Source: Lachnospiraceae bacterium JLR.KK008 (lineage in GTDB: Bacteria; Bacillota; Clostridia; Lachnospirales; Lachnospiraceae). From it: a stretch of 64,000 bases of DNA. The notes beneath the pieces are model-generated. The model made no database searches. It was given only the letters and a program-made list of their open reading frames with translations, and was not told the origin of the DNA. The translations under genes and the position numbers were made by a program. Positions within the stretch are counted from its first letter, which is position 1. The number at the start of each line of letters is the position of its first letter. The stretch spans positions 2,722,001 to 2,786,000 of the forward strand of contig CP143548.1 of the NCBI GenBank assembly GCA_037015955.1, in the 5' to 3' direction. Of the stretch, positions 8,114-33,989 are shown piece after piece.

Positions 8114-9430
8114 CTACAATCTCCAGTAAAGATACCCGGCTTTCTCATACGTATCCCGGTCAAGCACGCCTTTAATGTCCGCGAGCACTTTTTTCCGGCC
8201 CTTCGTGCCGTACAGCCTGTCCAGCCGTTCCATTGTCAGCGTTTCATATTGCTGATGGGAGACAGCCAGAATCATTGCATCCAGATCGCGGATTTCCGAC
8301 TCTTCCACAAACGAAATGCCATACTCCCGCTGCGCCTCGTCTCTGTCAGCCACCGGATCAGTAATCAACGGTTCGATGCCATATTCTTTCAGTTCATTGA
8401 CAATGTCGATCACTTTGGTATTTCTCGTATCCGGACAGTTCTCCTTGAACGTAAAACCGAAAATAGCGACTCTGGCTCCCTTAACCGGAATATCGGCCCT
8501 GATCAGATGTTTTACAAGGCTTTCAGCCACATATTTACCCATATCGTCATTGATCCGCCGCCCAGACAATATGATCTGCGAATGATAGCCGAGCTGTTCC
8601 GCCTTATATGTCAGATAATAAGGGTCAACGCCGATACAGTGCCCGCCTACAAGCCCGGGAAAGAACTTCAGGAAATTCCATTTTGTCCCCGCTGCTTCCA
8701 GCACGGATTTTGTGTCGATGCCCATTTTGTTAAAGATAATCGAGAGTTCATTCATAAAGGCGATATTGATGTCACGCTGACTGTTTTCGATTACTTTGGC
8801 CGCCTCGGCAACTTTAATCGACTGCGCCCGGTGCACGCCGGCGTCCACGACAAGCTCATAGACATGCGCAATTTCTTCCAGCGTCTCCGCATCCATACCG
8901 GACACGATCTTGGTGATTGTCTCCAGCCTGTGCACCTTATCACCGGGATTGATCCGCTCCGGAGAATAGCCAATCTTAAAGTCGACGCCGCAGACAAGGC
9001 TCGATTCCTGTTCCAGAATCGGCACACAGATCTCTTCTGTCACACCCGGATAAACAGTCGACTCAAAGACAACAACAGAACCTTTCGTCAGATTACGTCC
9101 GAGAATACGGCTGGCCCCTTCCACCGGCGTCAGATCCGGTGTATGGTCCGCGTTGACCGGCGTCGGTACCGCCACGATATGAAATTTGGCCTCTTTCAGA
9201 CTGCTCTCATCATCCGTAAAGCGGACATTACACCCGGCGATCGCCTCGTTGCCCACCTCGCCTGTAGGATCAATGCCATTTTGATACAGCTCAATCTTCT
9301 TTCTGTTCAGATCAAAGCCGATGACATCAATCTTTCTGGAAAAAGCGACGGCAATCGGCATCCCCACATAGCCAAGACCTACCAGAGACAGTTTTTCTTC
9401 TCTGTTTACCAGTTTTTCATATAAGCTCAT
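8114..9430 (-). CDS. tviB: UDP-N-acetylhexosamine 6-dehydrogenase, TviB/WbpO type
   Basis: 438 residues with the three domains of nucleotide-sugar dehydrogenases. The NAD motif G-L-G-Y-V-G is at 18-23, and the S-P-E-R-I-N-P-G-D segment near 156-164. The catalytic Cys265 sits in G-G-H-C-I-G-V-D-P-Y-Y-L, and F-T-F-K-E-N-C-P-D-T-R-N is in the C-terminal domain. These match TviB and WbpO rather than UDP-glucose dehydrogenases, which have G-G-S-C-F-P-K. It oxidises C6 of UDP-GlcNAc or UDP-GalNAc in two NAD-dependent steps. With the WbpP epimerase at 3.8-4.7 kb it should yield UDP-GalNAcA. Its start overlaps the next gene's stop (ATGA). Confidence 0.92.
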   Translation of the reverse strand: MSLYEKLVNREEKLSLVGLGYVGMPIAVAFSRKIDVIGFDLNRKKIELYQNGIDPTGEVGNEAIAGCNVRFTDDESSLKEAKFHIVAVPTPVNADHTPDLTPVEGASRILGRNLTKGSVVVFESTVYPGVTEEICVPILEQESSLVCGVDFKIGYSPERINPGDKVHRLETITKIVSGMDAETLEEIAHVYELVVDAGVHRAQSIKVAEAAKVIENSQRDINIAFMNELSIIFNKMGIDTKSVLEAAGTKWNFLKFFPGLVGGHCIGVDPYYLTYKAEQLGYHSQIILSGRRINDDMGKYVAESLVKHLIRADIPVKGARVAIFGFTFKENCPDTRNTKVIDIVNELKEYGIEPLITDPVADRDEAQREYGISFVEESEIRDLDAMILAVSHQQYETLTMERLDRLYGTKGRKKVLADIKGVLDRDTYEKAGYLYWRL

Positions 9431-10554
9431 TCGTTATTTCCTCCAAGTCTCTTATTTGTGATCCGCTCGACCGCCTTCAGATAACGTTCAACCACCAGAT
9501 TACGGTCGAACCGCTGTTCCATATATTGTCTGCCGTTTTCTCCCAGTCTCTTTCTCTCCTCCACAGAGAGCGCGAGAAACCGCTCTGTCTTGTCGATCAG
9601 ATCCTGGCTGTCTTTTTCCCGGATGAGAAAACCGCTCTTTCCGTCCAGAACCGTTTCTCTGCACCCTGCCCGGTCTGTGGTAATCACTGCCCGTCCGCAG
9701 GCCGCCGCCTCCAGACAGACATTTGACATCCCTTCCGGATAATAAGACGGGTGAAGGATACACTGACTCTGCCGGATATAAGGAATGACATCCTCCACGC
9801 TGCCGATAAATTCGATCACCCCTTCTCTTTGCAGCCGTTCAAACCGCTCTTTTCCGGTATAGTCCTCTTCCAGGAACCCGAGAATCCGGAATCTCGTCTC
9901 CGGATGACGCCCGCGTATTTCCTGCGCCGCATCCAGTAATTGTTCAATGCCCTTCTCTTTCATGATACGGGAGATGAACAGAAATCCAACCGTCTCGCTG
10001 TCCTCCGGAAACGGCTGTCTCGCAAAATGCTGCAGATTGACACCGGAGCCGGGCAGCATTTTATGCCTTCCGGGTGCTATCTTCCATCTCGCAAACAATT
10101 TTTCGTTTGTCTCATTCTGAAAAAAGACAAGCCTCGCCCGCCGCAGCGCCACCCGGTACATCAGCTGCGTCAGACGCTGCAACAGGCCACTTCCCTCCAC
10201 TGCCGTACCAAGACCGGTAATCGTTGTCACATATGGTATCTTCATGAGCCCACATAAGAATCCCATATAGACATTGGGCTTGATCGTATACGTCAGCGTC
10301 ACGTCCGGCTGTACCTGCCGGAGAATTTTCCGATAGGCACGCAGCAGACTGATCTCCTGCAGCGGATTCGTCCCCCGGCGGTTGAGCGCCGTATTATGAA
10401 AGATGCAGCCCATTGCCTGCAGCCGCTCCGTATATTCCCCCGTCGGTACGGCGACATGCACTTCATGGCCCGACGCCACAAGCTTTTCTAACAGCTCTTT
10501 TCTGAAGTTATAAAGTCCCTCGTCAAAGTTGATGACGATCAATACTTTTTTCAT
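9427..10554 (-). CDS. GT4 glycosyltransferase, PglA-like
   Basis: 375 residues. The start V-L-I-V-I-N-F-D-E-G-L-Y-N-F-R-K-E-L and the segments T-I-K-P-N-V-Y and T-I-T-G-L-G are those of PglA/CapM-type enzymes, which in Campylobacter add GalNAc to a lipid-linked bacillosamine-type sugar. The donor domain has S-R-I-M-K-E-K-G and P-S-Y-Y-P-E-G-M-S-N-V-C-L-E-A-A-A-C-G-R, holding the E-x7-E pair. Sitting close to the PglC/PglE/PglF-like genes, it is a good candidate for adding the second sugar. It overlaps its neighbours on both sides by ATGA. Confidence 0.85.
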   Translation of the reverse strand: MKKVLIVINFDEGLYNFRKELLEKLVASGHEVHVAVPTGEYTERLQAMGCIFHNTALNRRGTNPLQEISLLRAYRKILRQVQPDVTLTYTIKPNVYMGFLCGLMKIPYVTTITGLGTAVEGSGLLQRLTQLMYRVALRRARLVFFQNETNEKLFARWKIAPGRHKMLPGSGVNLQHFARQPFPEDSETVGFLFISRIMKEKGIEQLLDAAQEIRGRHPETRFRILGFLEEDYTGKERFERLQREGVIEFIGSVEDVIPYIRQSQCILHPSYYPEGMSNVCLEAAACGRAVITTDRAGCRETVLDGKSGFLIREKDSQDLIDKTERFLALSVEERKRLGENGRQYMEQRFDRNLVVERYLKAVERITNKRLGGNNE

Positions 10555-11528
10555 GAATTGTCCTGACTGTCCTTCCGCACCATGATCTCATTGTATTTCA
10601 TCATAATCAGGCCTTCCTCATAGTTGCCTGTTATGCTTTCATTCTCTCTGCCCTCCAGATTGCGGCAGATCAGCTCCATATGATTCACCCCACAGGCGTA
10701 AGCATGAGGATACCCGCCGCCAAATCGCGGGTTGACCTCGGAAATATAATAGGTTCCGCCCAAATCGAAAATATCAATATCAATCTGCCCCCGGAACCCC
10801 GCTTCCGTGATAAACCGTTCAATCAGGGCAAACAGCTCTTCGTCCTGAAAGGATACGCTCTTGTCCGTCTCTCCGGCCCGCATGACCAGCTTCTTCTTCG
10901 TAAAGACTGAGACCGGCCTGCCACTGATCAGATCGATATAACAGTCCGCGCCGATCTCCTGCCCGTCCAGAAACTGCTGGATCATCATCCCCTCGCCGTG
11001 GCTTACGAGCAAACGCACCGTTTCTTCGTCAAAGGCTTTGGAGATGCCAAGGCTGGCGCTTCCCCTGGCCGGCTTCACAAAAACCGGATAAGAAATCAGT
11101 CCCGCTTTCTCGTCCCTCACAAACGCCTCCACATCCATATAAGAGCGGGCACATTGATAGCCATGGCCTTCCAGCCATCGATACATCTCCCACTTATCCA
11201 ATGTCCGCTCGCACAGCGCATAAGAACTGCCGATCACCGTCACACCCAGCTCCCGGAATTCCCGCTCATGCAAAGCCAGCAGAGAAAGTTCGGGATCAAT
11301 CAGTGAGAGCACCCCCGTGATCTGCTCCTTCCGGCAGATGTCATATAATACATCCAAATATCCCTCTTCCGTAATCCGGGGAACAATATAATGGCAGTCT
11401 GCCTCATACAGGGCCGGCGCATTGACGCTGCAATCGGTAGCCACGACTTTTCCCCTTCCCTGTAACGCCTCTCTGAAATACTGTACGATTTTATTTCTTG
11501 TTCCGCAGCTTGCAATCAATATGTTCAT
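10551..11528 (-). CDS. ATP-grasp ligase (carbamoyl-phosphate synthase-like)
   Basis: 325 residues. The N-terminal Rossmann-like part (M-N-I-L-I-A-S-C-G-T-R-N-K) precedes an ATP-grasp core with F-V-K-P-A-R-G-S-A-S-L-G-I, in which the Lys and glycine loop bind ATP, and E-V-N-P-R-F-G-G-G near residue 265, the metal site. Members join a carboxylate to an amine through an acyl-phosphate. Its genomic position is telling: with the PLP enzyme upstream it sits between the PglC-like and PglA-like genes of a bacillosamine-type module that has no PglD acetyltransferase. Attachment of an amino acid or similar acid to a sugar amine is therefore a reasonable hypothesis, not shown by sequence. Confidence 0.82.
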   Translation of the reverse strand: MNILIASCGTRNKIVQYFREALQGRGKVVATDCSVNAPALYEADCHYIVPRITEEGYLDVLYDICRKEQITGVLSLIDPELSLLALHEREFRELGVTVIGSSYALCERTLDKWEMYRWLEGHGYQCARSYMDVEAFVRDEKAGLISYPVFVKPARGSASLGISKAFDEETVRLLVSHGEGMMIQQFLDGQEIGADCYIDLISGRPVSVFTKKKLVMRAGETDKSVSFQDEELFALIERFITEAGFRGQIDIDIFDLGGTYYISEVNPRFGGGYPHAYACGVNHMELICRNLEGRENESITGNYEEGLIMMKYNEIMVRKDSQDNS

Positions 11529-11537
11529 ATTCTGTCC

Positions 11538-12725
11538 TCAATCTTCATAATAACTCTTCTGCACATATTCCCCAGCTGTCCACCGTTCGCGGACACATAT
11601 CAGCGTTCCCTCTTCTTCCATGACATAGACCGCCGGGAAATAGCGGATAAACAGCGGCGTCAGACACATCGTATATCCGCCCACTTTCTGGTAGATGATC
11701 CGGTCTCCGGCCTGAAGCGCCGGTTTTTCCTCTATCGTAAACAGTCGGTCATTCTCCATACAGGTAAACCCGCAAACGACCTGCCGCTCCATAATCTCTC
11801 TGTCTTCTGCCATTCCCTGATAATATATGTTATGAAAATAAGAGCTCTTCCCATGCAGCGGATCGATGTCGCTCCGGCTGCCGTCCGTGACTGCGAAACG
11901 TCCCGCATGCGTATCCTTACAGTCGACAACACTTGTCACATACTCGATTGGCGGTGTGATCAGCGACGTACCCGGCTCCACGATCAGCATTGTCTCCTCC
12001 GGCGCAAACTCCACCTGCAATTCTTCCCGGACTGCCCGCATATAATCCGGAAATTTTGGTCTGTTATCCATCCCTCCGAAATAACCGCCGCCAATATCGA
12101 TATAATCCGGCCGCAGATCGTATTCCCGTTTCAGTCTGCAGGCCATCCTGGCCAATGCCCTGTAAATATTGACGCTTCTCGTTCTCGAACTCGCATGAAG
12201 GTGCAGCCCTGACAGCTTTACGCCCATCCGCTGCAGCCGCCCGATTGCCGCCGCCAGCGCTCCCGTCTCGTAAGAGAAGCCGAATCTGCCGCCATCCGCC
12301 CCGGAAGATGTCTCTCCCGGGCACACAGACTCCAGATCAAAGTTGACCCGCAAGCCTACCGTCACCTCCCGCAGGCCTGATTCCTCCAGCCAGTCCAGTT
12401 CACGCCCGGCGTCCAGATTGACAATTGTGCCCTCTTTTAATGCTTCCAGAAAAGAGGCTTTCTCCTTCACCGGCCCATTATAAATAATATGGGCAAATCC
12501 CAGCCGCTTCGCCAGCTCATATTCATCTCCGGATACGACCTCCGCATAAAATCCCGCCTTTTTCATCTGCACAAGCGCCCAGGGCAGCGCGTTTGTTTTG
12601 AACGAATAGCCGACGATATAATTGTTCCAGTTTGTCTCCAGCGCCGTCTTTAACAGCGCAATGCCCTCTTCCAGTCCCCGCTTGTCGATGACATAACAGG
12701 GCGTCTCCAAATAGTCGTATCTCAT
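11538..12725 (-). CDS. Fold-type III PLP enzyme (diaminopimelate/ornithine decarboxylase-like)
   Basis: 395 residues, alanine-racemase-type barrel followed by a beta domain. The PLP lysine is K43 in G-Y-S-F-K-T-N, equivalent to Y-A-x-K-A-N in LysA. L-H-L-H-A-S-S and D-I-G-G-G-Y-F-G (the phosphate-binding glycines) follow, then E-P-G-T-S-L-I. Late in the protein, V-C-G-F-T-C-M-E-N-D matches the cysteine loop of decarboxylases. It lies 9 bases from the ATP-grasp gene and 7 bases downstream of the PglC-like gene, so the three are probably co-expressed. It is unlikely to be housekeeping LysA given this context. Decarboxylation of an amino acid destined for ligation is inferred. Confidence 0.8.
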   Translation of the reverse strand: MRYDYLETPCYVIDKRGLEEGIALLKTALETNWNNYIVGYSFKTNALPWALVQMKKAGFYAEVVSGDEYELAKRLGFAHIIYNGPVKEKASFLEALKEGTIVNLDAGRELDWLEESGLREVTVGLRVNFDLESVCPGETSSGADGGRFGFSYETGALAAAIGRLQRMGVKLSGLHLHASSRTRSVNIYRALARMACRLKREYDLRPDYIDIGGGYFGGMDNRPKFPDYMRAVREELQVEFAPEETMLIVEPGTSLITPPIEYVTSVVDCKDTHAGRFAVTDGSRSDIDPLHGKSSYFHNIYYQGMAEDREIMERQVVCGFTCMENDRLFTIEEKPALQAGDRIIYQKVGGYTMCLTPLFIRYFPAVYVMEEEGTLICVRERWTAGEYVQKSYYED

Positions 12726-12732
12726 ATCACTC

Positions 12733-13350
12733 TCACCTCTGCTTTTCCCGTTCGTCCCACAGATACCCTTCCACAGAATCCGTCTCCACGGCCACGTCCT
12801 CTTTTTTCAGCACGACCATGACCGTTTTCCACAATATGTTCAAATCCGTCAGAAATGTCAGATGCTCCACATATTCCACATCTTTCGCCAGACGGTCGTC
12901 CCAGGCGATAAAGTTGCGTCCGCTCACCTGTGCCAGCCCGGTCAGGCCCGGTCTTACCGTATGCCGCAGCCGTTCCCGTTCCGTATAATAAGGCAGATAG
13001 CCGACGAGCAGCGGGCGCGGCCCGATAATGCTCATATCACCCTTAAATATGTTCCACAGCTCCGGCAGTTCATCGAGACTGGTCCGGCGCAGAAAAGAAC
13101 CGAAGGCAGTCAGCCTCTGATAATCCGGAAGCAGTTCTCCGTTTTCGTCTTTTTCATCGGTCATCGTGCGGAATTTGCAGAGTGTGAATATCCGCTCCCC
13201 ATAGCCGGGACGCTCCTGATGAAAGATGACCGGACTGCCCAGACGCATGCGCACAAGCACCGCCACAATCAGAAAGACCGGACTTAAGATGAGCAGCGCA
13301 GCCCCCGACAATACAATATCAAACAATCTTTTTATTACCGACCGGTACAT
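12733..13350 (-). CDS. Monotopic phosphoglycosyl transferase, PglC-like
   Basis: 205 residues, the minimal one-domain form. A single re-entrant hydrophobic helix (about 12-34) contains S-P at 23-24. The catalytic D93-E94 pair lies in T-S-L-D-E-L-P-E-L-W-N, with P-R-P at 111-113 and G-L-A-Q-V-S-G later. The enzyme moves a phospho-sugar from a UDP-sugar to undecaprenyl phosphate, starting a glycan. Because PglE- and PglF-like genes lie directly upstream, the likely donor is a UDP-N-acetyl-4-amino-4,6-dideoxy sugar or an acylated form of it. A second, polytopic initiating transferase exists at 45.3 kb. Confidence 0.9.
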   Translation of the reverse strand: MYRSVIKRLFDIVLSGAALLILSPVFLIVAVLVRMRLGSPVIFHQERPGYGERIFTLCKFRTMTDEKDENGELLPDYQRLTAFGSFLRRTSLDELPELWNIFKGDMSIIGPRPLLVGYLPYYTERERLRHTVRPGLTGLAQVSGRNFIAWDDRLAKDVEYVEHLTFLTDLNILWKTVMVVLKKEDVAVETDSVEGYLWDEREKQR

Positions 13351-13392
13351 ACCGCCCTCCTTATGTTCCGGGACAACGCAGAACCATGCGTA

Positions 13393-14535
13393 TCATTGTT
13401 TGCCAAATACGCCTCTGACCACGCGGATAATATCATCCATATCGTCCTCCGTGTTCTTGATGTCGCTCGGAAGACAGAGACCATAATTGAAAATGTCCTC
13501 CGAGATGCTCCCCGCCTCTCCCTGTGGCTTATGAGAGAAAAAGTCACAGTCCGCATAGACCGGCTGCAGCTGCATCGGTTTCCAGATCGGTCTGGACTCG
13601 ATGTTCTCCTTAGCCAGCGCATCCATAATCCGGACCGGCGTGACGTCGCAGTCTTTGGAGACAGTCATACACGACAGCCAGTTATTCGCCTCCCCGTCAG
13701 GATTCAGCGGATTCATGGCAATCTGCGGAATATCAGCGAATGCCTCCCGGTACGTATGATAAATTTTCTGTTTTAGTCTGCGGTGCAGATCGAGGGAACG
13801 CATCTGTCCTCTGCCGATCCCCGCATCGACATTGCTCATCCGGTAATTATAGCCGATCTGGGAATGCTGATAATGTCTGGCGGCATCCCGCGCCTGTGTG
13901 GCCAGGAAACGCGCCCTGTCAATCGCCTCCTTATCCTCCGACACGAGCATTCCGCCGCCGGAAGTGGTAATGATCTTATTGCCGTTAAACGAAAAGATAC
14001 CGAATCTGCCAAATGTCCCTGTCTGCTTTCCCTTATAAGTAGCGGAAAGAGACTCCGCGGCATCTTCAATGATCGGCACGTGATGTTCCTCACAGATCTC
14101 CATGATCTCATCCATCTTCGCAGGCGTTCCATAGAGATGGACACAGATAACCGCTTTCGGATGCGGGTATTTCTCAAACGCTCTCCGCAGCGCCTGTGGA
14201 GACATATTCCACGTGTCCGGTTCCGAATCGATAAACACCGGCGTGGCATTTTCATAACGGACGGGGTTACAGCTTGCGGAAAATGTGAGCGCGGAACAAA
14301 AGACAATATCCCCCGCTCCGATCCCCAGTAGTTTGATCGCCAGATGAATGGCCGCGGTGCCTGAAGAAAGCGCCGCCGCATACCTGGCGCCTGTATATTC
14401 CGACACTTCTTTTTCAAAAGCATCCACATGGGGTCCCACCGGCGCGATCCAGTTCGTGTCAAAAGCCTCCTGCACAAACTTCCTCTCCCACTCATGCATT
14501 GTCGGTGACGCAAGATAAATTCTCTTCTTTTCCAT
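13393..14535 (-). CDS. DegT/DnrJ/EryC1 aminotransferase, PglE-like
   Basis: 380 residues. The PLP lysine is K187 in F-S-F-N-G-N-K-I-I-T-T-S-G-G-G. P-V-F-I-D and I-I-E-D-A-A-E-S-L are the usual cofactor contacts. The start L-A-S-P-T-M-H-E-W-E and N-W-I-A-P-V-G-P-H closely follow PglE-type enzymes, which aminate C4 of UDP-4-keto-6-deoxy-GlcNAc using glutamate. The upstream gene encodes the matching dehydratase. An in-frame TTG at 14541 is rejected in favour of the ATG at 14535, which has AAAGGGAG 8 bases upstream. The usual partner acetyltransferase (PglD) is not next to it. Confidence 0.88.
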   Translation of the reverse strand: MEKKRIYLASPTMHEWERKFVQEAFDTNWIAPVGPHVDAFEKEVSEYTGARYAAALSSGTAAIHLAIKLLGIGAGDIVFCSALTFSASCNPVRYENATPVFIDSEPDTWNMSPQALRRAFEKYPHPKAVICVHLYGTPAKMDEIMEICEEHHVPIIEDAAESLSATYKGKQTGTFGRFGIFSFNGNKIITTSGGGMLVSEDKEAIDRARFLATQARDAARHYQHSQIGYNYRMSNVDAGIGRGQMRSLDLHRRLKQKIYHTYREAFADIPQIAMNPLNPDGEANNWLSCMTVSKDCDVTPVRIMDALAKENIESRPIWKPMQLQPVYADCDFFSHKPQGEAGSISEDIFNYGLCLPSDIKNTEDDMDDIIRVVRGVFGKQ

Positions 14536-14565
14536 AAGCAATACTCCCTTTCCTGTCCGTATCCC

Positions 14566-16419
14566 CTATAACTTTGGCGTATAAGTCGGTACGATCTCTC
14601 TGATCATATCCCGAATATCCGTTTTTTCTTCTTCCACTGCTGTTTTCAGTTCATGCAGCTGTACGAAAAATTTTCTCTCGTCAAATTCGATCGGCTTTCC
14701 GATATGGATCAGCTTATTGTCCGTCTCTTTCATGCCTTCCTCATTCATCAGCAATTCCTCATACAGCTTCTCTCCCGGCCGCAGTCCGGTAAATTCTATG
14801 CGGATGTCATCATCCACTTTGTAACCTGAAAGCCGGATCAGATTTTTCGCCAGATCGAGTATTTTCACCGGTTCCCCCATGTCAAGGATAAAGATCTCCC
14901 CGCCTTTGGCATAAGCGCCCGCCTGCAATACGAGTGATACCGCCTCCGGTATCGTCATAAAATAGCGGATAATATCGGGATGCGTCACCGTTACCGGCCC
15001 CCCTGCCTCAATCTGCTTGCGAAACAGCGGGATGACGCTGCCATTGCTCCCGAGCACATTGCCAAACCGGACCGCCACAAATTCCGTATCATAATATTTG
15101 TTAAACGTCTGAATGATCATCTCACAGATACGTTTGGAGGCGCCCATCACATTCGTGGGATTGACCGCCTTATCCGTGGAAATCATTACGAATTTCTTCA
15201 CCCCGTTCATGGCCGCCGCCTGCGCAGTCTTCCAGGTGCCAAATACATTGTTTTTGATCGCCTCATCCGGGCTCACTTCCATCAGCGGCACATGTTTGTG
15301 GGCCGCCGCGTGGTAGACGATGTCCGGGTGGTAGTCCTCAAAGATTCTGTTCATCCGCTTTGTATTTCTCACGGACGCAATCAGTACGAGCATATCGAGC
15401 AGTGGATATTTGATCTTTAATTCCTGCTGAATATCATAGGCATTGTTTTCGTAAATATCGACGACAATCAGCTTTTTCGGCTTATGGGAAGCGATCTGCC
15501 GGCACAGCTCGCTGCCGATGGAGCCGCCGCCGCCTGTGACGAGCACTGTCTGATCTTTCACATACCCTAAAATAGAGTCCAGGTCAACCTTGATCGGATC
15601 TCTGCCGAGCAGGTCCTCCACATCGACATCCCGGAGCTTGCTCACATCCACTTCCCCATTGACAAGCTGATACATCCCCGGCAGTGTCCGCAGCTTACAG
15701 TTCGTCTGTCCAGCGATCTCTACGATTTCCTTGATCGTCCTGCGCCCCGCCGAAGGAATCGCAATAATGATCTCATCAATGCCGTACAGAGCCGCACTCT
15801 CCACGATCTTATCCCTACCGCCCACGACCTTGATTCCCTGGATGAATCTGCCCTGTTTGTGCGGATCATCATCAATAATTGCCTGAATACGCATTGTACT
15901 GAAATAACTGGAATTGATCTCCTTGATGATCGTATTGCCCGCATCACCGGCGCCGACAATCATCACGGCAATTCCATTCTTTTTATTATGCCGCCTGCGT
16001 CTCTTCTCCCTTGCGAAGCGATACGCAAACCGGCTCATCATCGTAACCGCCACGAGCAAAAAGGCATTGAAAAAATAGTAACTTTTGGGCACATCGCGGT
16101 CGAAAAGAAGCAGTGTCACTCCCTGCAGCGCCGCACTGGTAAAGCAGGCCACGACGATATTTTGCATCTCGCTCACTCCCGCATACGCCCACAGACTGTG
16201 ATACAACCGGAAAATATAGAAGAGCGCCAGTGTAATGGCAATACTTACGGGAAGATGCTCCCAGACGGCATTGACAAAATACCCCGGAATATCATCCATC
16301 TGAAACTCATATCTCAGAAGCAGCGACAAAAAATTGCAACAGCACACCGCGATAATATCATAGGCGACGAGAAACGCCCTTCTTGTGACCAACTTATAGT
16401 TCAGCTCTACTTTTTTCAT
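14566..16419 (-). CDS. Membrane-anchored UDP-GlcNAc 4,6-dehydratase, PglF/CapD family
   Basis: 617 residues. Four N-terminal helices (about 14-36, 57-72, 84-105, 113-130) anchor a cytoplasmic part with two Rossmann units: V-G-A-G-D-A-G-N at 155-162 and T-G-G-G-G-S-I-G-S-E at 295-304. The catalytic region is S-T-D-K-A at 414-418 with M-G-A-S-K at 425-429; the family uses Met in place of Tyr in the catalytic triad. Members make UDP-4-keto-6-deoxy-GlcNAc, the substrate of the PglE-like enzyme 30 bases downstream. The full length with both Rossmann units matches PglF and FlmA-type long dehydratases, distinct from the short PseB at 34 kb. Confidence 0.92.
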   Translation of the reverse strand: MKKVELNYKLVTRRAFLVAYDIIAVCCCNFLSLLLRYEFQMDDIPGYFVNAVWEHLPVSIAITLALFYIFRLYHSLWAYAGVSEMQNIVVACFTSAALQGVTLLLFDRDVPKSYYFFNAFLLVAVTMMSRFAYRFAREKRRRRHNKKNGIAVMIVGAGDAGNTIIKEINSSYFSTMRIQAIIDDDPHKQGRFIQGIKVVGGRDKIVESAALYGIDEIIIAIPSAGRRTIKEIVEIAGQTNCKLRTLPGMYQLVNGEVDVSKLRDVDVEDLLGRDPIKVDLDSILGYVKDQTVLVTGGGGSIGSELCRQIASHKPKKLIVVDIYENNAYDIQQELKIKYPLLDMLVLIASVRNTKRMNRIFEDYHPDIVYHAAAHKHVPLMEVSPDEAIKNNVFGTWKTAQAAAMNGVKKFVMISTDKAVNPTNVMGASKRICEMIIQTFNKYYDTEFVAVRFGNVLGSNGSVIPLFRKQIEAGGPVTVTHPDIIRYFMTIPEAVSLVLQAGAYAKGGEIFILDMGEPVKILDLAKNLIRLSGYKVDDDIRIEFTGLRPGEKLYEELLMNEEGMKETDNKLIHIGKPIEFDERKFFVQLHELKTAVEEEKTDIRDMIREIVPTYTPKL

Positions 16420-20454: not shown

Positions 20455-21397
20455 GTCCTTTTGGTCCGCTCTTTTGTCCGATCACTTCCCGGATCACATA
20501 CTGCGGAGAATTATTGAGACTAATATAGATCCTGCCCACATATTCACCGATCAGTCCCAGCATCAGCATGATCATGCCGCCGATAAAGACAAGCGCCGAC
20601 ATCAGAGAGCTGAAGCCGATCGGTACATCCGGATTAATCAGACGTTTGACAACCGTATAAATACCATATAAAAACCCGCTGCCTGCGCAGAGCACACCGA
20701 TCATCGTCGCAAAACGAAGAGGCTGGATCGAAAATGCCGTAAACCCGTTAAACCACAGTCCCAGCAGCGCTTTCATCGTATATCCTGAATGTCCGACTTC
20801 CCTCTGCCTGTGCGCAACTTCCACATTACCGATGTTTTTCGTCGTCCGCAGAACAAGCCCGATCACATACGGATAACAGTTCTCATAGCGCACTACCTCG
20901 TCGATCACAAACCGTCTGGCGGCAAAATAACTTGAGATGTAAAGCTCTTTCGGCTTACCGAGCATAAAGCGCGTCATGATCTCATTGACCTTGCTGCCAA
21001 AATTACGGAACGCCGTGTGCTGTTTATTGGAATACCGGGCATATACGACATCACGCCCTGCTTCAATCTCAGCCAGAAACCGTCCGGCATCTTCCGCCGG
21101 CGTCTGCCCGTCATCGTCGAGGCAGATGACAATATCCCCGGTCACATGCCGGAAACCGGCCATCAGCGCCGCGTGCTGGCCGAAATTTCTGGCCAGGGAA
21201 ACGCCTGTAATATTGTTATGTTTTTCACAAAGTTTATGAATCACCTGCAACGTATGATCCGGTGAGCAGTCATTGACAAGAACGATCTCATAGCCATACT
21301 GCCGCAGTCCGTCCATCGTACGGCAGATTTCCTCCACGACCCGTTCCAGCGTCAGCTCCGAGCGATAACAGGGAATGACAAAACTGACTCTATCCAT
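20438..21397 (-). CDS. Polyprenyl-phosphate glycosyltransferase, GtrB/ArnC-like (GT2)
   Basis: 319 residues. The GT-A core begins V-S-F-V-I-P-C-Y-R-S-E-L-T-L, with D-C-S-P-D at 44-48 and the donor/metal D-D-D-G-Q-T near 94. Two C-terminal helices (about 228-255 and 263-285) with the linking P-D-V-P-I-G-F-S-S-L are characteristic of GtrB, ArnC and YkcC. It moves a sugar from a nucleotide donor to undecaprenyl phosphate on the inner face. The product is the likely donor for the GT39 enzyme downstream. The 8-base overlap with the GNAT gene upstream indicates co-translation. Confidence 0.88.
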   Translation of the reverse strand: MDRVSFVIPCYRSELTLERVVEEICRTMDGLRQYGYEIVLVNDCSPDHTLQVIHKLCEKHNNITGVSLARNFGQHAALMAGFRHVTGDIVICLDDDGQTPAEDAGRFLAEIEAGRDVVYARYSNKQHTAFRNFGSKVNEIMTRFMLGKPKELYISSYFAARRFVIDEVVRYENCYPYVIGLVLRTTKNIGNVEVAHRQREVGHSGYTMKALLGLWFNGFTAFSIQPLRFATMIGVLCAGSGFLYGIYTVVKRLINPDVPIGFSSLMSALVFIGGMIMLMLGLIGEYVGRIYISLNNSPQYVIREVIGQKSGPKGHENGI

Positions 21398-21932
21398 GAT
21401 AGCCCTCCTGCGGATTGATCATCCGCATCAATATGAGATCTTTATAGATCCCCCGGATACATACCTCGTCTTTCAGATACGCTTCCTGCATAAACCCCGC
21501 TTTCTCATAGGACTTCCTCGCAATCTCATTATCTGCAAGTACCCGCAGAAATATTTTATGCAGATGCAGCTTTTCAAATCCATACCGTGAAATCAGGCGG
21601 ATGCTCTCCGAGCCGATCCCATGCCCCATCTGCGCTTCCTCACCGATAAAGATCCCAAACTCCGCACGCCTGTGTGTCTGATCAATATCCCGCAGATAGA
21701 CACTGCCCACATCGATACCCGCGTCAATACTGTGGATGATAAACTGTTCTACAATGCCTGTACCCACCTTATCGCGCAGCCATTCTCTGTGGCTTTCCGG
21801 TGTGAAAAGTGTCTGATATATGAAGTTTCTTCTCACATGATCGCTGTTGCGCCAGCGGACAATATTGTCTGTGTCTCTGTCCGTGATCGGCCGCAATATG
21901 ACATGTTCTCCTGTGATCATTTCCTGTCCCAC
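21390..21932 (-). CDS. GNAT N-acetyltransferase (RimJ/PseH-like)
   Basis: 180 residues with the GNAT order of strands. I-L-R-P-I-T-D-R-D opens the fold, E-F-G-I-F-I-G-E-E leads to the acetyl-CoA loop Q-M-G-H-G-I-G-S, and N-E-I-A-R-K-S-Y-E-K-A-G-F closes it. PseH and sugar 4-amino acetyltransferases belong to this group. Three candidate substrates are supplied nearby: the RffA product dTDP-Fuc4N (a WecD-like role), the PglE product in place of a missing PglD, or the PseC product. Closeness to rffA favours the first. Not decidable from sequence. Confidence 0.8.
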   Translation of the reverse strand: MGQEMITGEHVILRPITDRDTDNIVRWRNSDHVRRNFIYQTLFTPESHREWLRDKVGTGIVEQFIIHSIDAGIDVGSVYLRDIDQTHRRAEFGIFIGEEAQMGHGIGSESIRLISRYGFEKLHLHKIFLRVLADNEIARKSYEKAGFMQEAYLKDEVCIRGIYKDLILMRMINPQEGYHG

Positions 21933-21966: not shown

Positions 21967-23754
21967 TTATCGGATCAGATATACCGAAAAGTTCCCACAC
22001 CTGTCCGTCTCCTGTATCGTAATCTCCCTGCCTTTTTCCGCAAAATACGCGGTGAGAAAGTCCGGACTTCTCTCTTCCCTCGTATTGTCCGCTGCAAAGT
22101 ACGCCCTGCCTGCAAGCAGCCCCTCCGCCGCACTCTCAAAGCCTGACACCTGACGCTTTTGCTTCGAAAGCGGACTCTTCACACACCAGCCGCCCGGCAG
22201 ATCAAAATTTCTGTAGGCAGGCGAAATGTCGGAAAACAGCTTCTCCGAATAAGCTACGGAGGAATAAACGTCAAGATAATAAAACTGCTCCGGCCGCTCG
22301 CGGCAGTATTGCTTCCACAACTGCCACTGGACATTGACCGACTGTCTGTCCTCATAGATCTGTTTTACCGATCCGATATGAAGAAACGCCGTACAGACAA
22401 ATAAAACTGCATACATAGACAGTATAGCCGATTTTTGAAATTTTTTCCACCTGAATACATCCGTATCGGATACGAACAAGAGGACCAGCAAAATCAGTTC
22501 CATCAGATAAAGCGGATGCGTCACTCTTTCCGGCGCCCGGCCCCGGTACAGCAAAAACAGCCAGAGAGCTGTCCGCACCCCAAGCACCAGAGCCAGCTTC
22601 CCCAGCAGCAGCGGCTTTTTCTCCGCCAGCGCCGCTCTCGCAAGAAAGAAATATGTCACCACAAGTAACAGATCAAAGATCAGTTCTTCTCCATGTGTAA
22701 ACCGGTAGCCATAGGCATAGACACTCTCATACAGCCTGCGCGCCATACTTTTTTCCTGATGCTGCGACGCATAGACCGCGATCTCATGCATCATCTGCGT
22801 ATCGATGTCATCGTCCAGATCAAAATTATAATTTTCCAGCAGTGTATATTGCGCCTCGGACAGACCGATCGAGTCATAAAACTGCCGATTATTCTCATAA
22901 GAAGGAATCCCGTAAAAATCATAGAGTTCCGTGCGGTCATCAAAAAACTGCCGAAACCTGCGCCACTCCTCACTGCCATAGGCCGCACGATCCGCAATCA
23001 GCCCCGCCGCCAGAATGACTACCATCACTGCGAGCAAAAAGCCACAGCTTTTCACAAGAGCGATCCGTTCATTTCTGACACTTGTGTCATTTATATCGTC
23101 TTTCTTTATATTTCTGTCATTGCCGCCGCGAATCGCCGCCCAATCTTCTGCCACCCGGAAAAGCACTGCCAGCCCGAGAAGCGGACACAGGAGCATCACG
23201 ATCTCCGTGCGCAGGTAAAAGGCCAGCCCGACCACTGCCGCAGTGACCAGATGATACACAGTAAACTCTGCGCTTCCGGCCCGCGGTCCGCGATAAACTC
23301 TCACAAGAGCGGCACAGACGAGCAGTCCTGCCGTCACCGTATACTGGACAAAGACAAATTCATACAGAAAAAGGACGCCTGTCCCGGCTGTGAGAAGAAG
23401 CGCTGCCACAGCCTTTTGTCTCCTGTCCCTGCACAGGCCGCAGAAGCTGTTGACGCCAAGCCAGAGTGCAAAAAACTGGCAGCCGCACAGAAAGAGCCCA
23501 TACCAGGGGACAGCCGGCAAAATCCGGTAGCAAAGGCTGATACACAGGCCGAGCGGATAGAGCGACTGAATATTATGACCGTCAGGACTCCCGGTATAAG
23601 TGCCCGACAAAATATCCTTCATGGCCATATCATCATTCAGATCATAATAAAAGTCAAAGCAGACTGCCAGAATGATCCCCAGACCGATGACAATAAGCGC
23701 CGTCAGTCCCCGGTCTCTCCATCTGTCCCTTTGCTGCCCTGCCGCAGATTTCAT
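21967..23754 (-). CDS. Large polytopic membrane protein, GT-C-like
   Basis: 595 residues with about ten to twelve helices. The first outer loop has D-L-N-D-D-M-A-M-K-D-I-L-S-G, an acidic patch placed as in GT-C catalytic loops, and a soluble C-terminal part of about 140 residues follows the last helix. No named family recognised. It overlaps the rffA stop as ATGA, so it is co-translated with a dTDP-amino-sugar gene. A membrane sugar transferase or surface-glycan modifying role is inferred from topology and context only. Confidence 0.55.
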   Translation of the reverse strand: MKSAAGQQRDRWRDRGLTALIVIGLGIILAVCFDFYYDLNDDMAMKDILSGTYTGSPDGHNIQSLYPLGLCISLCYRILPAVPWYGLFLCGCQFFALWLGVNSFCGLCRDRRQKAVAALLLTAGTGVLFLYEFVFVQYTVTAGLLVCAALVRVYRGPRAGSAEFTVYHLVTAAVVGLAFYLRTEIVMLLCPLLGLAVLFRVAEDWAAIRGGNDRNIKKDDINDTSVRNERIALVKSCGFLLAVMVVILAAGLIADRAAYGSEEWRRFRQFFDDRTELYDFYGIPSYENNRQFYDSIGLSEAQYTLLENYNFDLDDDIDTQMMHEIAVYASQHQEKSMARRLYESVYAYGYRFTHGEELIFDLLLVVTYFFLARAALAEKKPLLLGKLALVLGVRTALWLFLLYRGRAPERVTHPLYLMELILLVLLFVSDTDVFRWKKFQKSAILSMYAVLFVCTAFLHIGSVKQIYEDRQSVNVQWQLWKQYCRERPEQFYYLDVYSSVAYSEKLFSDISPAYRNFDLPGGWCVKSPLSKQKRQVSGFESAAEGLLAGRAYFAADNTREERSPDFLTAYFAEKGREITIQETDRCGNFSVYLIR

Positions 23755-24881
23755 ACGCGATAGAACTCCTTCACTTTCCCCGTAATATAAGCGACTTCTT
23801 CGGATGTCAGCTTATAAAACATCGGCAGCCGGCAGAGCCGTTCGCTCTCTTTCGTCGTATAGTTATCATCTCCGTGGAACCTGCCGAATTTCAGTCCCGC
23901 CGGCGCCGTGTGCAGCGGAATATAATGAAATACCGACAAGATGCCGTTCTCTTTCAAAAAGGCCAGCAGAGCCGTCCGCTCCTGCAAGTCTTTTGCTTTG
24001 ATATAAAACATGTGGGCGTTATGCACGCAATGCTCAGGGATCGTCGGCAGCTCCAGCAATCCTTTTTCCTGTAATGGCAAAAGCTGCTCATAATACTGAT
24101 TCCAGAGAGCAAGCCTGTGATCGTTGATCTCGTCCGCCATCTCTAACTGCGCCCAGAGATAGGCCGCGTTCATATCGCTCGGGAGATAAGACGACCCAAA
24201 GTTGACCCACGTATATTTGTCGATCTGCCCACGGAAAAATTTACTGCGGTTCGTCCCCTTCTCTCTCAGTATTTCCGCTTCCTCCACATATTTTTCATCC
24301 CGGATCAGAAGCGCGCCGCCTTCGCCCATGCTGTAATTTTTTGTCTCATGGAAGCTGAATGCCCCGAAATCTCCGAATGTACCGAGCGCCTTTCCTTTAT
24401 ACGTGGAGAGAATCCCCTGCGCCGCGTCCTCAATCACGAACAGATGATGCCGGTCCGCGATGTCCATAATCGTGTCCATCTCACAGGCCACACCTGCATA
24501 ATGGACTGGGACGATTGCTTTCGTCTTCTCCGTGACTGCAGCTTCAATCAACTTCTCATCGATATTCATCGTATCCGGCCGGATGTCGACAAACACCGGC
24601 GTCGCCCCCCGCAGCACGAAGGCATCGGCCGTGGACACAAAGGTGTAGGAAGGCATGATCACTTCGTCGCCCGGTCCGATCTGCGCCAGAAGTGCCGCCA
24701 GCTCGGTCGCATGAGTACAGGACGTCGTCAGCAGACACTTTCCCGTGCCTGTCCTCTCTTCCAGCCAGCGATTACACTTTCCTGTAAATTCCCCGTCGCC
24801 GCAGATTTTCTGCTTTTCCACCGCCTGACTGATGTAATGTAGTTCTCTGCCCGTATAGGGGGGAATATTAAATACGATCAT
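23751..24881 (-). CDS. rffA: dTDP-4-amino-4,6-dideoxygalactose transaminase
   Basis: 376 residues, same length as E. coli RffA (WecE). Near-identical family blocks include G-D-E-V-I-M-P-S-Y-T-F-V-S-T, P-V-H-Y-A-G-V-A-C-E-M-D-T-I-M, and F-S-F-H-E-T-K-N-Y with PLP lysine K181. R-E-K-G-T-N-R-S-K-F-F-R-G-Q follows. It aminates dTDP-4-keto-6-deoxyglucose to dTDP-Fuc4N. The dehydratase that makes its substrate (RmlB) and RmlA are not in the window, so they must be elsewhere. A strong GGAGGAG site precedes the ATG, and a candidate promoter lies at 24.9 kb. The GNAT at 21.4 kb could complete dTDP-Fuc4NAc. Confidence 0.93.
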   Translation of the reverse strand: MIVFNIPPYTGRELHYISQAVEKQKICGDGEFTGKCNRWLEERTGTGKCLLTTSCTHATELAALLAQIGPGDEVIMPSYTFVSTADAFVLRGATPVFVDIRPDTMNIDEKLIEAAVTEKTKAIVPVHYAGVACEMDTIMDIADRHHLFVIEDAAQGILSTYKGKALGTFGDFGAFSFHETKNYSMGEGGALLIRDEKYVEEAEILREKGTNRSKFFRGQIDKYTWVNFGSSYLPSDMNAAYLWAQLEMADEINDHRLALWNQYYEQLLPLQEKGLLELPTIPEHCVHNAHMFYIKAKDLQERTALLAFLKENGILSVFHYIPLHTAPAGLKFGRFHGDDNYTTKESERLCRLPMFYKLTSEEVAYITGKVKEFYRV

Positions 24882-28912: not shown

Positions 28913-28916
28913 GTTA

Positions 28917-29603: not shown

Positions 29604-30791
29604 CTATTTCCCTCTCTTTTCAAAGCGGACTCTGGCCGTCACTGTCCCGTCCGCACAGTCCGCCTCATAAAACCGCAGCCTGTAGTCTCCCAGCTCCACA
29701 AACGCACCCGGGTATCCCTCTCCGTCGAGCATCCGGATATAGTCGTAAATCGTCTTCTCATCCATCTCCGGCAGCAGTCTCCCGTCCTCGGGTTTCCTGC
29801 GCCGGAACACAACCGCCTCGCCTCTCTGCGGTACAGGCTGCGGATGATTCGCGAGCAGATCAGGAATCATTTTCCGAAAGATCAGATCTGATGCCCGACG
29901 CAGGATTTCGTCCGCCGTTCCCCGCAATTCCAGATCTTCTTTCATATAAATATCGCCCGTATCGATCCCTTGGTCCACACGCAGCGCCGAGAGCTTCGTA
30001 CGCGTAAAGCCTCTCACGATCAGATTCTGCAGCGGGCTGCCGCCTCTGCCATACGGAAGATCTGTCATGTGAAAGACGACACACCGGTAACTGCCGAATA
30101 TCTCCTCCGGTATGAGATAAGACCAGTGCGGGAAAAAAACATACTCCGGTCTGACTGCCTGAAGCGTCTGTGTGGTCAGATCCGCCTTGTCCGTTATCAC
30201 ATGTACATCGTATTTCCCTTCATACTGCTGCCGCAGTTTCTCAGCATTGGCAATATTCCATGATTTCTGTGTACAGATCACGACCGACGGCCGGCGGGCG
30301 TCCGCTGTCTTTGCACATTCCCTCTCCAGTACGACATAGTCGCCTCTGTCCTGTGTCATCGCAAACCCGCACTTTTCAAACACTCTCATAGAAGCCGGAT
30401 TGCTTTTTTTCACACAGGCCGAGAATTTGCGGCAGCCATCGGCAGCCAGCCGCATTGCCTCTTCCAGCAGTCTGGTACCGTATCCTCTGCCACGAAACGC
30501 AGAGACGACAGAATAATCGATCTCCGAAGTTCCGTCACTGCTGTCCAGCCGGATCTGCCCGATCGGTTTTTCTGACATATGTGTCATATCAGCCATCGTC
30601 TCCGCCGTGATATAACCGATATAGATCCGGCAATTTTCATCCTGCAGTTTTCCTTTCAGCCATTTCACATGCTCATCCCACAGGATCTCCTGCTGCCGGA
30701 ACGCATTTCTCCTCACATCGATGTCATTGGCCCAGGAGAACAAAAGTTCCGCATCGTCAAGCGATGCCCTTCTCAGGAAAATGTCCTTCAT
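29604..30791 (-). CDS. pseH: PseH-type GNAT fused to formyltransferase
   Basis: 395 residues in two parts. Residues 1-155 are a GNAT fold: F-L-R-R-A-S-L-D-D-A-E-L-L, then I-D-Y-S-V-V-S-A-F-R-G-R-G-Y-G-T (acetyl-CoA loop) and N-P-A-S-M-R-V-F-E-K-C-G-F, as in PseH. Residues 165-395 are a formyl-tetrahydrofolate-type transferase: V-V-F-H-M-T-D-L-P-Y-G-R-G-G-S-P-L-Q near 255, D-Q-G-I-D-T-G-D-I near 285, and a FMT-like C-terminal stretch F-R-R-R-K-P-E-D-G. The His and Asp of the catalytic set are present; the Asn of the usual N-x-H is not evident. The fusion lies inside the pse operon, so N-acetyl and N-formyl forms are both possible. Confidence 0.85.
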   Translation of the reverse strand: MKDIFLRRASLDDAELLFSWANDIDVRRNAFRQQEILWDEHVKWLKGKLQDENCRIYIGYITAETMADMTHMSEKPIGQIRLDSSDGTSEIDYSVVSAFRGRGYGTRLLEEAMRLAADGCRKFSACVKKSNPASMRVFEKCGFAMTQDRGDYVVLERECAKTADARRPSVVICTQKSWNIANAEKLRQQYEGKYDVHVITDKADLTTQTLQAVRPEYVFFPHWSYLIPEEIFGSYRCVVFHMTDLPYGRGGSPLQNLIVRGFTRTKLSALRVDQGIDTGDIYMKEDLELRGTADEILRRASDLIFRKMIPDLLANHPQPVPQRGEAVVFRRRKPEDGRLLPEMDEKTIYDYIRMLDGEGYPGAFVELGDYRLRFYEADCADGTVTARVRFEKRGK

Positions 30792-31837: not shown

Positions 31838-31881
31838 ATCTGTTCCCCGCCGTTTCGCTCAGTCCGTATGATTCATGGAAC

Positions 31882-32610: not shown

Positions 32611-32651
32611 CTATCTACCTCCCACACTTCTCTGCCACGAAACCGCCTGTC

Positions 32652-33845: not shown

Positions 33846-33989
33846 ACTTCCTACTCCCTTTCTACTGTCGGTAACGATATTGTGATAAAACCGGAAATTC
33901 CGGCAGTCACCGCTCCCATACAAAACAGAATCCCCGGGCCGAGCACGGATCACAGACTCGCCACAGGGACCCTATCAAAATACGTCCAT

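What the first reader, a model, noticed from the sequence alone, without database searches (positions are those of the whole stretch)
9427..16419. Bacillosamine-type initiation module carrying an ATP-grasp ligase and a PLP decarboxylase instead of PglD
PglF-, PglE-, PglC- and PglA-like genes form a typical initiation module, but no PglD-type acetyltransferase is next to them. In its place sit an ATP-grasp ligase and a fold-III PLP enzyme of the LysA group, tightly spaced. A ligase that joins acids to amines beside a transaminase that makes a sugar amine suggests an amino acid or amino-acid-derived acyl group on the C4 amine of the first sugar. The GNAT at 21.4 kb could alternatively supply acetylation. 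This arrangement is not one I can name.
Basis: partly seen in the sequence, partly recalled or inferred. Interest (0 to 1): 0.75.

Follow-up and report, generated by a model that had tools for sequence, protein, structure and literature searches.

The report
Amino-acid ligase replaces sugar acetyltransferase
This bacterium, probably from a gut, appears to decorate the first sugar of a surface glycan with an amino-acid-derived group instead of the usual acetyl group, using a ligase and a vitamin-B6 enzyme that sit in a swappable slot of the gene cluster.

Summary
In detail: PglF-, PglE- and PglC-like genes, then a fold-III PLP decarboxylase homologue and an ATP-grasp ligase, no PglD among them. 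Of 52 PglE-PglC modules taken by their aminotransferase (one, L046, was held for its PLP gene), 25 have an ATP-grasp, 17 a PglD/GNAT/FemAB-like acyltransferase, 10 neither, none both within 4 kb. The ligase is the core replacement; the PLP gene is an accessory, missing or replaced by a PALP-type enzyme beside sister ligases. ATP-grasp is fused to PglC in two loci. The PLP enzyme and a ligase recur in legionaminic and pseudaminic clusters. The genome has a separate LysA. Most likely the ligase puts an amino acid on the C4 amine and the PLP enzyme decarboxylates the conjugated residue, leaving 4-aminobutanoyl or beta-alanyl. Amino acid and order of steps are inferred. The 21.4-kb GNAT fits a WecE-type gene better. 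Against: one locus has pair and PglD together; the kinship-corrected test is not significant; a UDP-sugar dehydrogenase is enriched beside the ligase; two loci have the pair with no aminotransferase in the stretch held; a same-genus locus lacks PglE.

The parts
14566..16419 (-). PglF-like UDP-GlcNAc 4,6-dehydratase with N-terminal CoA_binding_3 region
   Evidence: PF02719 416 bits, PF13727 60 bits
13393..14541 (-). PglE/LegC-type DegT aminotransferase making the UDP-4-amino sugar
   Evidence: PF01041 319 bits; TIGR04181 375 bits, cut-off 420
12733..13350 (-). PglC-like phosphoglycosyltransferase
   Evidence: PF02397 207 bits; homologues fused to an ATP-grasp in L151 and L165
11538..12725 (-). 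Fold-III PLP decarboxylase homologue with conserved PLP/catalytic positions; not LysA
   Evidence: PF02784 81 bits; TIGR01048 125 bits, cut-off 298; invariant K43, E250-P-G, C322-x-E324-x-D326 in 22 of 22 aligned; nearest solved structure N-citrylornithine decarboxylase 7kh2 by profile and by fold E-value
10551..11528 (-). ATP-grasp ligase (PRK12767 type, PylC-like N-terminal domain), proposed amino-acid:UDP-4-amino-sugar ligase
   Evidence: NF009406 493 bits, cut-off 271; structure 2pn1 404 bits by profile, TM 0.89; model pLDDT 93.9
9427..10554 (-). GT4 glycosyltransferase, presumed to add the second sugar
   Evidence: PF00534 116 bits
8114..9430 (-). UDP-sugar C6 dehydrogenase of TviB type; found near part of the modules only
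   Evidence: TIGR03026 376 bits over its cut-off, TviB model 493 bits below its cut-off 592; occurrence
21390..21932 (-). GNAT acetyltransferase; assigned to the WecE branch, not to the module
   Evidence: PseH model 84.7 bits, cut-off 93.1; one gene between it and WecE 23751-24881; neighbours in relatives
23751..24881 (-). WecE-type dTDP-4-amino-4,6-dideoxygalactose transaminase (second 4-amino sugar of the window)
   Evidence: TIGR02379 644 bits, cut-off 435
29604..30791 (-). GNAT plus formyltransferase fusion in the pseudaminic acid set (third 4-amino sugar)
   Evidence: PF13302 63.5 bits, PF21553 66 bits, PF00551 29 bits

Best explanation
PglF and PglE turn UDP-GlcNAc into UDP-2-acetamido-4-amino-2,4,6-trideoxyglucose (inferred from family). 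The ATP-grasp ligase then activates an amino-acid carboxyl with ATP and joins it to the C4 amine, replacing PglD's acetyl-CoA step; the replacement is shown by context, the chemistry is inferred. Because a free alpha-carboxyl must remain for a fold-III decarboxylase, the amino acid is most likely glutamate or aspartate joined through its side-chain carboxyl. The PLP enzyme then decarboxylates the conjugated residue, leaving a 4-aminobutanoyl or beta-alanyl amide with a free, positively charged amine (inferred). PglC loads this sugar phosphate on undecaprenyl phosphate, and the GT4 and other transferases extend it. The ligase is the core of the replacement and the PLP gene is an optional tailoring unit.
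For: (1) Slot swapping: in 52 PglE-PglC modules, ATP-grasp in 25, PglD/GNAT/FemAB-like in 17, neither in 10, both in 0 within 4 kb, Fisher p 4e-7 uncorrected for kinship; without L046, which was held because of its PLP gene, 24, 17, 10 and 0, p 6e-7. p is at most 1.5e-6 for 2.5-6 kb, 0.023 at 1.5 kb and 0.005 at 8 kb. Within 450 bp after PglC, or fused to it, lies ATP-grasp in 15, PglD in 7, PLPdc in 4, PALP in 4, FemAB-like in 3, GNAT in 1, none of these in 18 of 52. (2) On the PglE tree the ATP-grasp label needs 14 changes, at least 7 forced by starred branches (quick tree). (3) Fusions: PglC-ATP-grasp L151, PglC-ATP-grasp-HAD L165; cytidylyltransferase-PLPdc L059 and L061. (4) Same genes elsewhere: in L015 and L016 the pair lies between NeuC- and NeuB-type genes behind a LegC aminotransferase, and no acetyltransferase was found among the genes scanned there or by my profiles; eight loci with pseudaminic genes (L054, L055, L057-L061, L064; L058 shows only PseB and PseC) all hold an ATP-grasp, L061's with an L-amino-acid-ligase C-terminal domain. 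(5) FemAB-like genes in the same slot hint at amino-acid cargo, though they also match acetyltransferase family PF13480. (6) The window ligase lies in a starred clade of 17, all with PLPdc; its sister clade of 9 has PALP in 4, neither in 4, PLPdc in 1 (56 ligases, quick tree). (7) The nearest solved relative of the PLP enzyme decarboxylates an amino acid already joined to another group: profile 227 bits against 171 for the best DAP decarboxylase. (8) A separate LysA homologue scores 297 bits on the LysA model.
Against: No enzyme assay or glycan structure. L014 has both the pair and a PglD-type gene 1 kb away. L049 and L050 have PglD-type genes 4.6-6.3 kb away, L178 has both classes at 5-6 kb, and at 8 kb 9 of 26 ATP-grasp modules have an acyltransferase nearby. 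In kinship-corrected pairs (7 pairs, on average 3.7 informative) every informative pair goes the expected way, but too few for significance (median p 0.125). 10 of 52 modules have neither class. The pair stands without an aminotransferase in the stretch held in L056 (beside YceD, fatty-acid-synthesis and ABC-transporter genes) and L065 (beside an AraC regulator). L047, from the window's own genus, has PglF-PglC-PLPdc-ligase and no PglE there; its genome has a LegC-like gene of 275 bits on another contig. Eight of 36 PLP loci show no aminotransferase in the stretch held (L011, L019, L047, L056, L059, L061, L063, L065; some stretches are cut by contig ends). L129 has a distant PLPdc homologue with PglD and no ATP-grasp. 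The amino acid is deduced from reaction logic, not from sequence.
Confidence: 0.57

Rival explanations
1. Amino-acid acylation of the C4 amine is right, but the PLP enzyme acts first on a free amino acid (for example aspartate to beta-alanine) and the ligase couples the product.
For: The ligase occurs without the PLP gene in other clusters; the PALP enzyme in the same place of sister clusters would also act on a free amino acid; an aspartate-dehydrogenase-like gene follows the PLP gene in L058.
Against: Nearest relatives of the PLP enzyme act on conjugates (N-citrylornithine, gamma-glutamyl-ACP) or on diamino acids; I know of no fold-III decarboxylase of free Asp or Glu (recalled). The Asp-dehydrogenase neighbour occurs in 1 locus only.
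Confidence: 0.22
2. The ligase amidates a sugar carboxyl: the UDP-sugar dehydrogenase makes a UDP-uronic acid, the ligase joins it to lysine or ornithine, and the PLP enzyme decarboxylates the amide, as in rhizoferrin synthesis.
For: Closest solved PLP relative is N-citrylornithine decarboxylase (that its substrate is an amide of a carboxylic acid is recalled). The dehydrogenase lies near 15 of 25 ATP-grasp modules against 3 of 17 acyltransferase modules and 2 of 10 with neither; Fisher p for the first two 0.011, not corrected for kinship.
Against: 10 of 25 ATP-grasp modules lack the dehydrogenase within 6.5 kb, and it also occurs with PglD (L139) and FemAB-like genes (L135, L146). L013-L016 gave no hit to the window dehydrogenase. 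The ligase replaces amine acyltransferases and is fused to PglC.
Confidence: 0.13
3. The first sugar is ordinary diacetylbacillosamine, acetylated by the distant GNAT, and the pair belongs to lysine, polyamine or another unrelated pathway.
For: Fold-III PLP enzymes include LysA and polyamine enzymes; a PseH-like GNAT lies 5 kb from the module in the window; the pair occurs apart from amino-sugar genes in L056 and L065.
Against: Separate LysA homologue; window enzyme far below LysA and carboxynorspermidine cut-offs; pair in amino-sugar clusters in most loci held; GNAT keeps company with a WecE-type gene.
Confidence: 0.07

Closest known systems
Diacetylbacillosamine module (Campylobacter PglF/PglE/PglD/PglC; Bacillus subtilis EpsC/N/M)
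   Same: Dehydratase, aminotransferase and phosphoglycosyltransferase in the same order of chemistry
   Different: The acetyl-CoA-dependent third enzyme (EpsM/PglD; passages of PMC10653937) is replaced by an ATP-grasp ligase, here with a PLP enzyme
BtrJ/BtrK/BtrI of butirosin
   Same: ATP-grasp plus fold-III PLP decarboxylase in a route to an aminobutyryl group that ends on an amine (passages of PMC11405602 name the set and the moiety; BtrJ as ATP-grasp in a passage of PMC4431377; the gamma-glutamyl chemistry is recalled and fits the name of 7ru7)
   Different: No carrier-protein gene fits between the genes of the module; the acceptor would be a nucleotide sugar; the ligase is of the PRK12767 type
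N-citrylornithine decarboxylase (FslC, rhizoferrin)
   Same: Closest solved relative of the PLP enzyme; acts on a conjugated amino acid
   Different: Below the FslC family cut-off (121 of 500 bits); siderophore context
Leg5Ac7NMeGlu on Clostridium botulinum flagellin
   Same: A natural legionaminic acid derivative named with N-methylglutamate at N7 in the passage seen (PMC2674064); N7 derives from the hexose C4 amine (recalled; other reports recalled place it at N5)
   Different: No ligase named in that passage; no decarboxylation
C. difficile type B flagellin glycan gene CDR20291_0245
   Same: ATP-grasp gene whose mutant lacks a peptidylamido-sugar (passages of PMC5207246)
   Different: Different ATP-grasp Pfam family, different sugar, with an ornithine-cyclodeaminase-like neighbour

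Membership tests
Diaminopimelate decarboxylase LysA | TIGR01048 curated cut-off (297.9 bits) | tested here: not met
   Window enzyme 124.6 bits; the genome's other PF02784 protein 296.8 bits, 1 bit under cut-off
Diaminopimelate decarboxylase LysA | Arginine in the 'RP..YGAYHH'-like segment, recalled as contacting the distal carboxylate of DAP | tested here: not met
   Genome LysA homologue has this segment; the window enzyme has IDP where the Arabidopsis enzyme has IRP. The role of the Arg is recalled
FslC N-citrylornithine decarboxylase | NF041039 cut-off 500 bits | tested here: not met
   121 bits, though first PDB hit by profile and fold E-value
Exosortase-A-associated decarboxylase | TIGR03099 cut-off 478 bits | tested here: not met
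   73 bits
Fold-III PLP decarboxylase | PLP lysine and catalytic Cys/Asp/Glu positions kept | tested here: met
   K43, E250-P251-G252, C322, E324 and D326 invariant in 22 of 22 aligned (roles recalled)
PRK12767-type ATP-grasp (function unknown) | NF009406 cut-off 271 bits | tested here: met
   493 bits
Bacillosamine initiation module | PglF, PglE and PglC homologues adjacent | tested here: met
   the PglE protein is below the LegC cut-off (375 of 420 bits)
Diacetylbacillosamine initiation module | PglD-type acetyltransferase in the module | tested here: not met
   None over cut-off among the seven genes of 8114-16419
BtrI/J/K carrier-protein system | Dedicated acyl carrier protein | tested here: not met
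   Gaps in 9427-13350 are 7, 9 and -4 bp, leaving no room; the rest of the window was not scanned for a carrier protein
Amino-acid:UDP-4-amino-sugar ligase | ATP-dependent amide formation on the C4 amine | not testable with these tools
   Needs an assay

The most novel reading that the evidence does not exclude
A swappable N-acylation slot serves three UDP-4-amino-sugar pathways (bacillosamine, legionaminic, pseudaminic). In it an ATP-grasp ligase charges the sugar amine with an amino acid without tRNA, CoA or carrier protein, and a fold-III PLP enzyme decarboxylates the residue on the nucleotide sugar, giving 4-aminobutanoyl- or beta-alanyl-bacillosamine, a cationic starter sugar, in Lachnospiraceae and some Bacteroidales.
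Probability: 0.38. Interest if true: 0.75.

Novelty: new variant of a known kind. Interest (0 to 1): 0.6.

Why it matters
It gives a concrete, testable function to an ATP-grasp family annotated only as 'carbamoyl phosphate synthase-like', and predicts a family of aminoacylated or decarboxylated-aminoacyl starter sugars in gut bacteria. A free amine on the starter sugar would add positive charge to surface glycans, a property tied to immune recognition of zwitterionic polysaccharides (recalled). The slot also suggests chemistry from gene content: acetyl (PglD/GNAT), possibly amino acid by tRNA (FemAB-like), amino acid (ATP-grasp), or altered amino acid (ATP-grasp plus PLPdc or PALP).

Tried and rejected
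Housekeeping lysine or polyamine role: unlikely by family cut-offs and the separate LysA homologue. GNAT at 21.4 kb as the acetylating enzyme of the module: first I took it for the PseH of the pseudaminic set; two searches showed a GNAT-formyltransferase fusion beside PseI. One search shows a homologue of the gene between WecE and the GNAT next to a GNAT and a GT2 in L008 and L192, and WecE plus that gene in L060, whose contig goes on with a GNAT in L168; but L154 has WecE, that gene and the GT2 with no GNAT hit, so the assignment is likely, not certain. 'The pair is one unit': rejected, the ligase often stands alone.

Pseudaminic test: PseH-like GNAT within 10 kb of PseG in 0 of 8 genomes with PLPdc-type pseudaminic loci against 29 of 69 other genomes (hand count; p 0.022). 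This is weak and depends on the cut: a GNAT lies at about 10.4 kb in G026, 12.7 kb in G585 (PseG placed from L060, as one search did not list it), 14.5 kb in G548 and 18 kb in G326; in G426 and G326 PseG and PLPdc are on different contigs.

Breadth: order of L016 1 of 344 genomes, which is the genome of L016 itself; class 5 of 291; family 22 of 397 at E 1e-40 (two of its places, in G614 and G674, were not fetched). Legionaminic-type sample: of 24 rows PglD 14, FemAB-like 3, ATP-grasp 1, none 6, both 0; too few for a test. Literature searches that found no earlier description: (open-access library only; one search listed 15 of 19 and 15 of 49, seen as titles and abstract starts; both papers were seen in passages; PMC13317340 and PMC11339370 were searched for terms, with nothing on this ligase). 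Iyer 2009, likely relevant, was not held.
Full report
WHAT IS THERE. The minus-strand run 16419 to 8114 encodes, in order of transcription, a PglF-like dehydratase, a DegT aminotransferase of the PglE/LegC group, a PglC-like phosphoglycosyltransferase, a fold-III PLP enzyme, an ATP-grasp enzyme, a GT4 and a UDP-sugar dehydrogenase. The PLP gene lies 7 bp from PglC and 9 bp from the ligase, and the ligase overlaps the GT4 by 4 bp. None of the seven reaches the cut-off of an acetyltransferase family. The window is 64 kb of a 3.19-Mb single-contig genome. Named relatives of its PLP gene are mostly Lachnospiraceae and other gut or rumen MAGs, with three Bacteroidales-type records (titles); the family name of the genome itself is inferred.

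THE PLP ENZYME. It matches PF02784 but scores 124.6 bits on the LysA model, whose cut-off is 297.9, and is below the FslC, exosortase-A-type and carboxynorspermidine models. The genome's only other PF02784 protein scores 296.8 bits on LysA and is the likely housekeeping enzyme. Across 22 aligned homologues the PLP lysine and the Glu-Pro-Gly and Cys-x-Glu-x-Asp motifs are invariant (roles recalled). A profile of the family finds N-citrylornithine decarboxylase first (227 bits), then DAP decarboxylases (171 and less) and BtrK (156). The predicted model (pLDDT 92.2) matches 7kh2 best by E-value, with DAP decarboxylases and BtrK of similar TM-score. By their names two of these relatives decarboxylate an amino acid already joined to something else.

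THE LIGASE. It belongs to the PRK12767/NF009406 family over its cut-off (493 against 271 bits), a family named only by resemblance. Its closest structure is 2pn1, then more distantly carbamoyl phosphate synthase, biotin carboxylases, PylC and L-amino-acid ligases.

RELATIVES. In the 17 loci (L003-L018) have the PLP gene directly beside an ATP-grasp and 1 (L019, 22% identity) does not. In the same family of genomes 22 of 397 hold a close homologue, in the class sample 5 of 291, in the order of L016 1 of 344, that one being its own genome. Of 36 distinct PLP loci, 33 hold an ATP-grasp by my profiles, 26 of them abutting. In 28 of the 36 a DegT-type aminotransferase is seen in the stretch; in 8 it is not. 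Two of these matter: L056 has the pair among housekeeping and transporter genes, and L065 beside an AraC regulator. L047, from the window's genus, has PglF-PglC-PLPdc-ligase without PglE; a LegC-like gene of 275 bits lies on another contig of that genome.

A SWAPPABLE SLOT. To avoid picking loci by the PLP gene, I took the aminotransferase family TIGR04181 (106 of 397 genomes at E 1e-85) and fetched 100 of its places, plus the window and L046, L048, L049 and L050, which were already held and are in the same list. Places weaker than about E 4e-91 were not fetched, so L046 (E 6e-88) is in only because of its PLP gene. Gene classes came from my own iterated profiles. Of 52 PglE-PglC modules, 25 have an ATP-grasp, 17 a PglD, GNAT or FemAB-like gene, 10 neither, none both within 4 kb; leaving out L046 gives p 6e-7. 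The result holds from 2.5 to 6 kb (L178 has both at 5-6 kb) and weakens at 8 kb, where more distant GNATs and PglDs come in. The PglE tree needs 14 changes of the ATP-grasp label, at least 7 forced by starred branches. A kinship-corrected pair test goes the expected way in every informative pair but is not significant. FemAB-like proteins in the slot are suggestive, as that family includes amino-acid transferases (recalled), but they match the acetyltransferase family PF13480 about as well. In the legionaminic-type loci PglD is common (14 of 24), and L111 has an ATP-grasp where others of the sample have PglD.

ACCESSORY GENES. Between PglC and the ligase some sister clusters have a PALP-type PLP enzyme (L145, L157, L160, L168; ACC-deaminase / D-cysteine desulfhydrase / CuyA group, all below cut-offs), or nothing; other ligases are fused to a HAD hydrolase (L150, L159, L174; L165). 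The ligase tree puts the window ligase in a starred clade of 17 that all have the decarboxylase, next to a starred clade of 9 (4 PALP, 4 with neither, 1 PLPdc). This is what one expects if the extra gene sets or alters the amino acid. ATP-grasp is fused to PglC in L151 and to PglC and HAD in L165.

OTHER PATHWAYS. In L015 and L016 the pair lies between NeuC- and NeuB-type genes of a legionaminic-type cluster. Of the genes there, nine of L015 were scanned with NCBIfam at E 1e-25 and five of L015 and four of L016 with Pfam; none is an acetyltransferase, and my profiles found none. In eight loci with pseudaminic genes the PLP homologue is near, or in L059 and L061 fused to, a cytidylyltransferase, with an ATP-grasp of another group in each, abutting in L059 and 1.2-5.1 kb away in the others. 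A PseH-like GNAT lies within 10 kb of PseG in 0 of 8 such genomes and 29 of 69 others, a weak result with the caveats given under Tried and rejected.

THREE AMINO SUGARS IN THE WINDOW. WecE (23751-24881) has a GNAT one gene away (21390-21932), PseC (32652-33953) has a GNAT-formyltransferase fusion two genes from PseF (29604-30791), and PglE has the ligase. Each aminotransferase thus has its own candidate N-acylating gene.

MECHANISM AND LIMITS. A ligase in the place of amine acyltransferases most simply acylates the C4 amine. A fold-III decarboxylase needs a free alpha-amino acid; if it acts after ligation, the bond must be through a side-chain carboxyl, giving an omega-aminoacyl amide. This reasoning, not sequence, picks Glu or Asp. 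Precedents are BtrJ/BtrK (passages, and recalled detail), N-citrylornithine decarboxylase and the N-methylglutamyl legionaminic acid of C. botulinum (passage). The uronamide rival has a point in its favour: the dehydrogenase is enriched beside the ligase (15 of 25 against 3 of 17).

VERDICT. Observation confirmed; interpretation supported by context, with the exceptions told above; a new variant of the bacillosamine-type module, with a clear assay to settle it.

Noticed in passing
window 29604-30791: GNAT domain fused to a formyltransferase domain inside the pseudaminic acid set; a possible N-formyl or mixed acyl pseudaminic acid.
   Followed up: partly
window 27728-34994: Pseudaminic acid gene set (PseG, PseI, PseF, PseC, PseB) with a PIG-L deacetylase-like gene (28917-29603) among them.
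   Followed up: partly
L151 7248-8873; L165 9125-11377: PglC fused to ATP-grasp, and PglC-ATP-grasp-HAD fusion, in single reading frames.
   Followed up: yes
L059 9394-11322; L061 8502-10535: Cytidylyltransferase (PF02348) fused to the PLP decarboxylase homologue in pseudaminic loci.
   Followed up: yes
L145 9741-10757; L157 6298-7257; L160 9620-10741; L168 9751-10725: ACC-deaminase/D-cysteine-desulfhydrase-like PLP enzyme between PglC and the ATP-grasp; cargo amino acid unknown.
   Followed up: partly
L150 5313-6923; L159 10051-11712; L174 4297-5916: ATP-grasp fused to a HAD-type phosphatase next to PglC; the phosphorylated substrate is unknown.
   Followed up: no
L146 5734-6804; L147 9786-10874; L135 2596-3663: FemAB-like (also PF13480) protein in the PglD slot; possibly tRNA-dependent aminoacylation of a bacillosamine-type sugar.
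   Followed up: partly
L056 9349-11544; L065 2637-4837: PLPdc-ligase pair standing alone, away from any aminotransferase in the stretch held.
   Followed up: partly
L047 6691-11429: Same-genus cluster with PglF-PglC-PLPdc-ligase but no PglE between them.
   Followed up: partly
L063 7929-10491: PLPdc homologue next to a divergent 'sugar-transfer associated' ATP-grasp (PF14397) that my profiles did not catch.
   Followed up: no
L058 1524-2327: Aspartate-dehydrogenase-like gene directly after the PLP homologue in a locus with PseB and PseC; the only case among the loci held.
   Followed up: partly
L129 9186-11227: HpcH/HpaI aldolase-like gene followed by a distant PLPdc homologue in a cluster with PglD and no ATP-grasp.
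   Followed up: no
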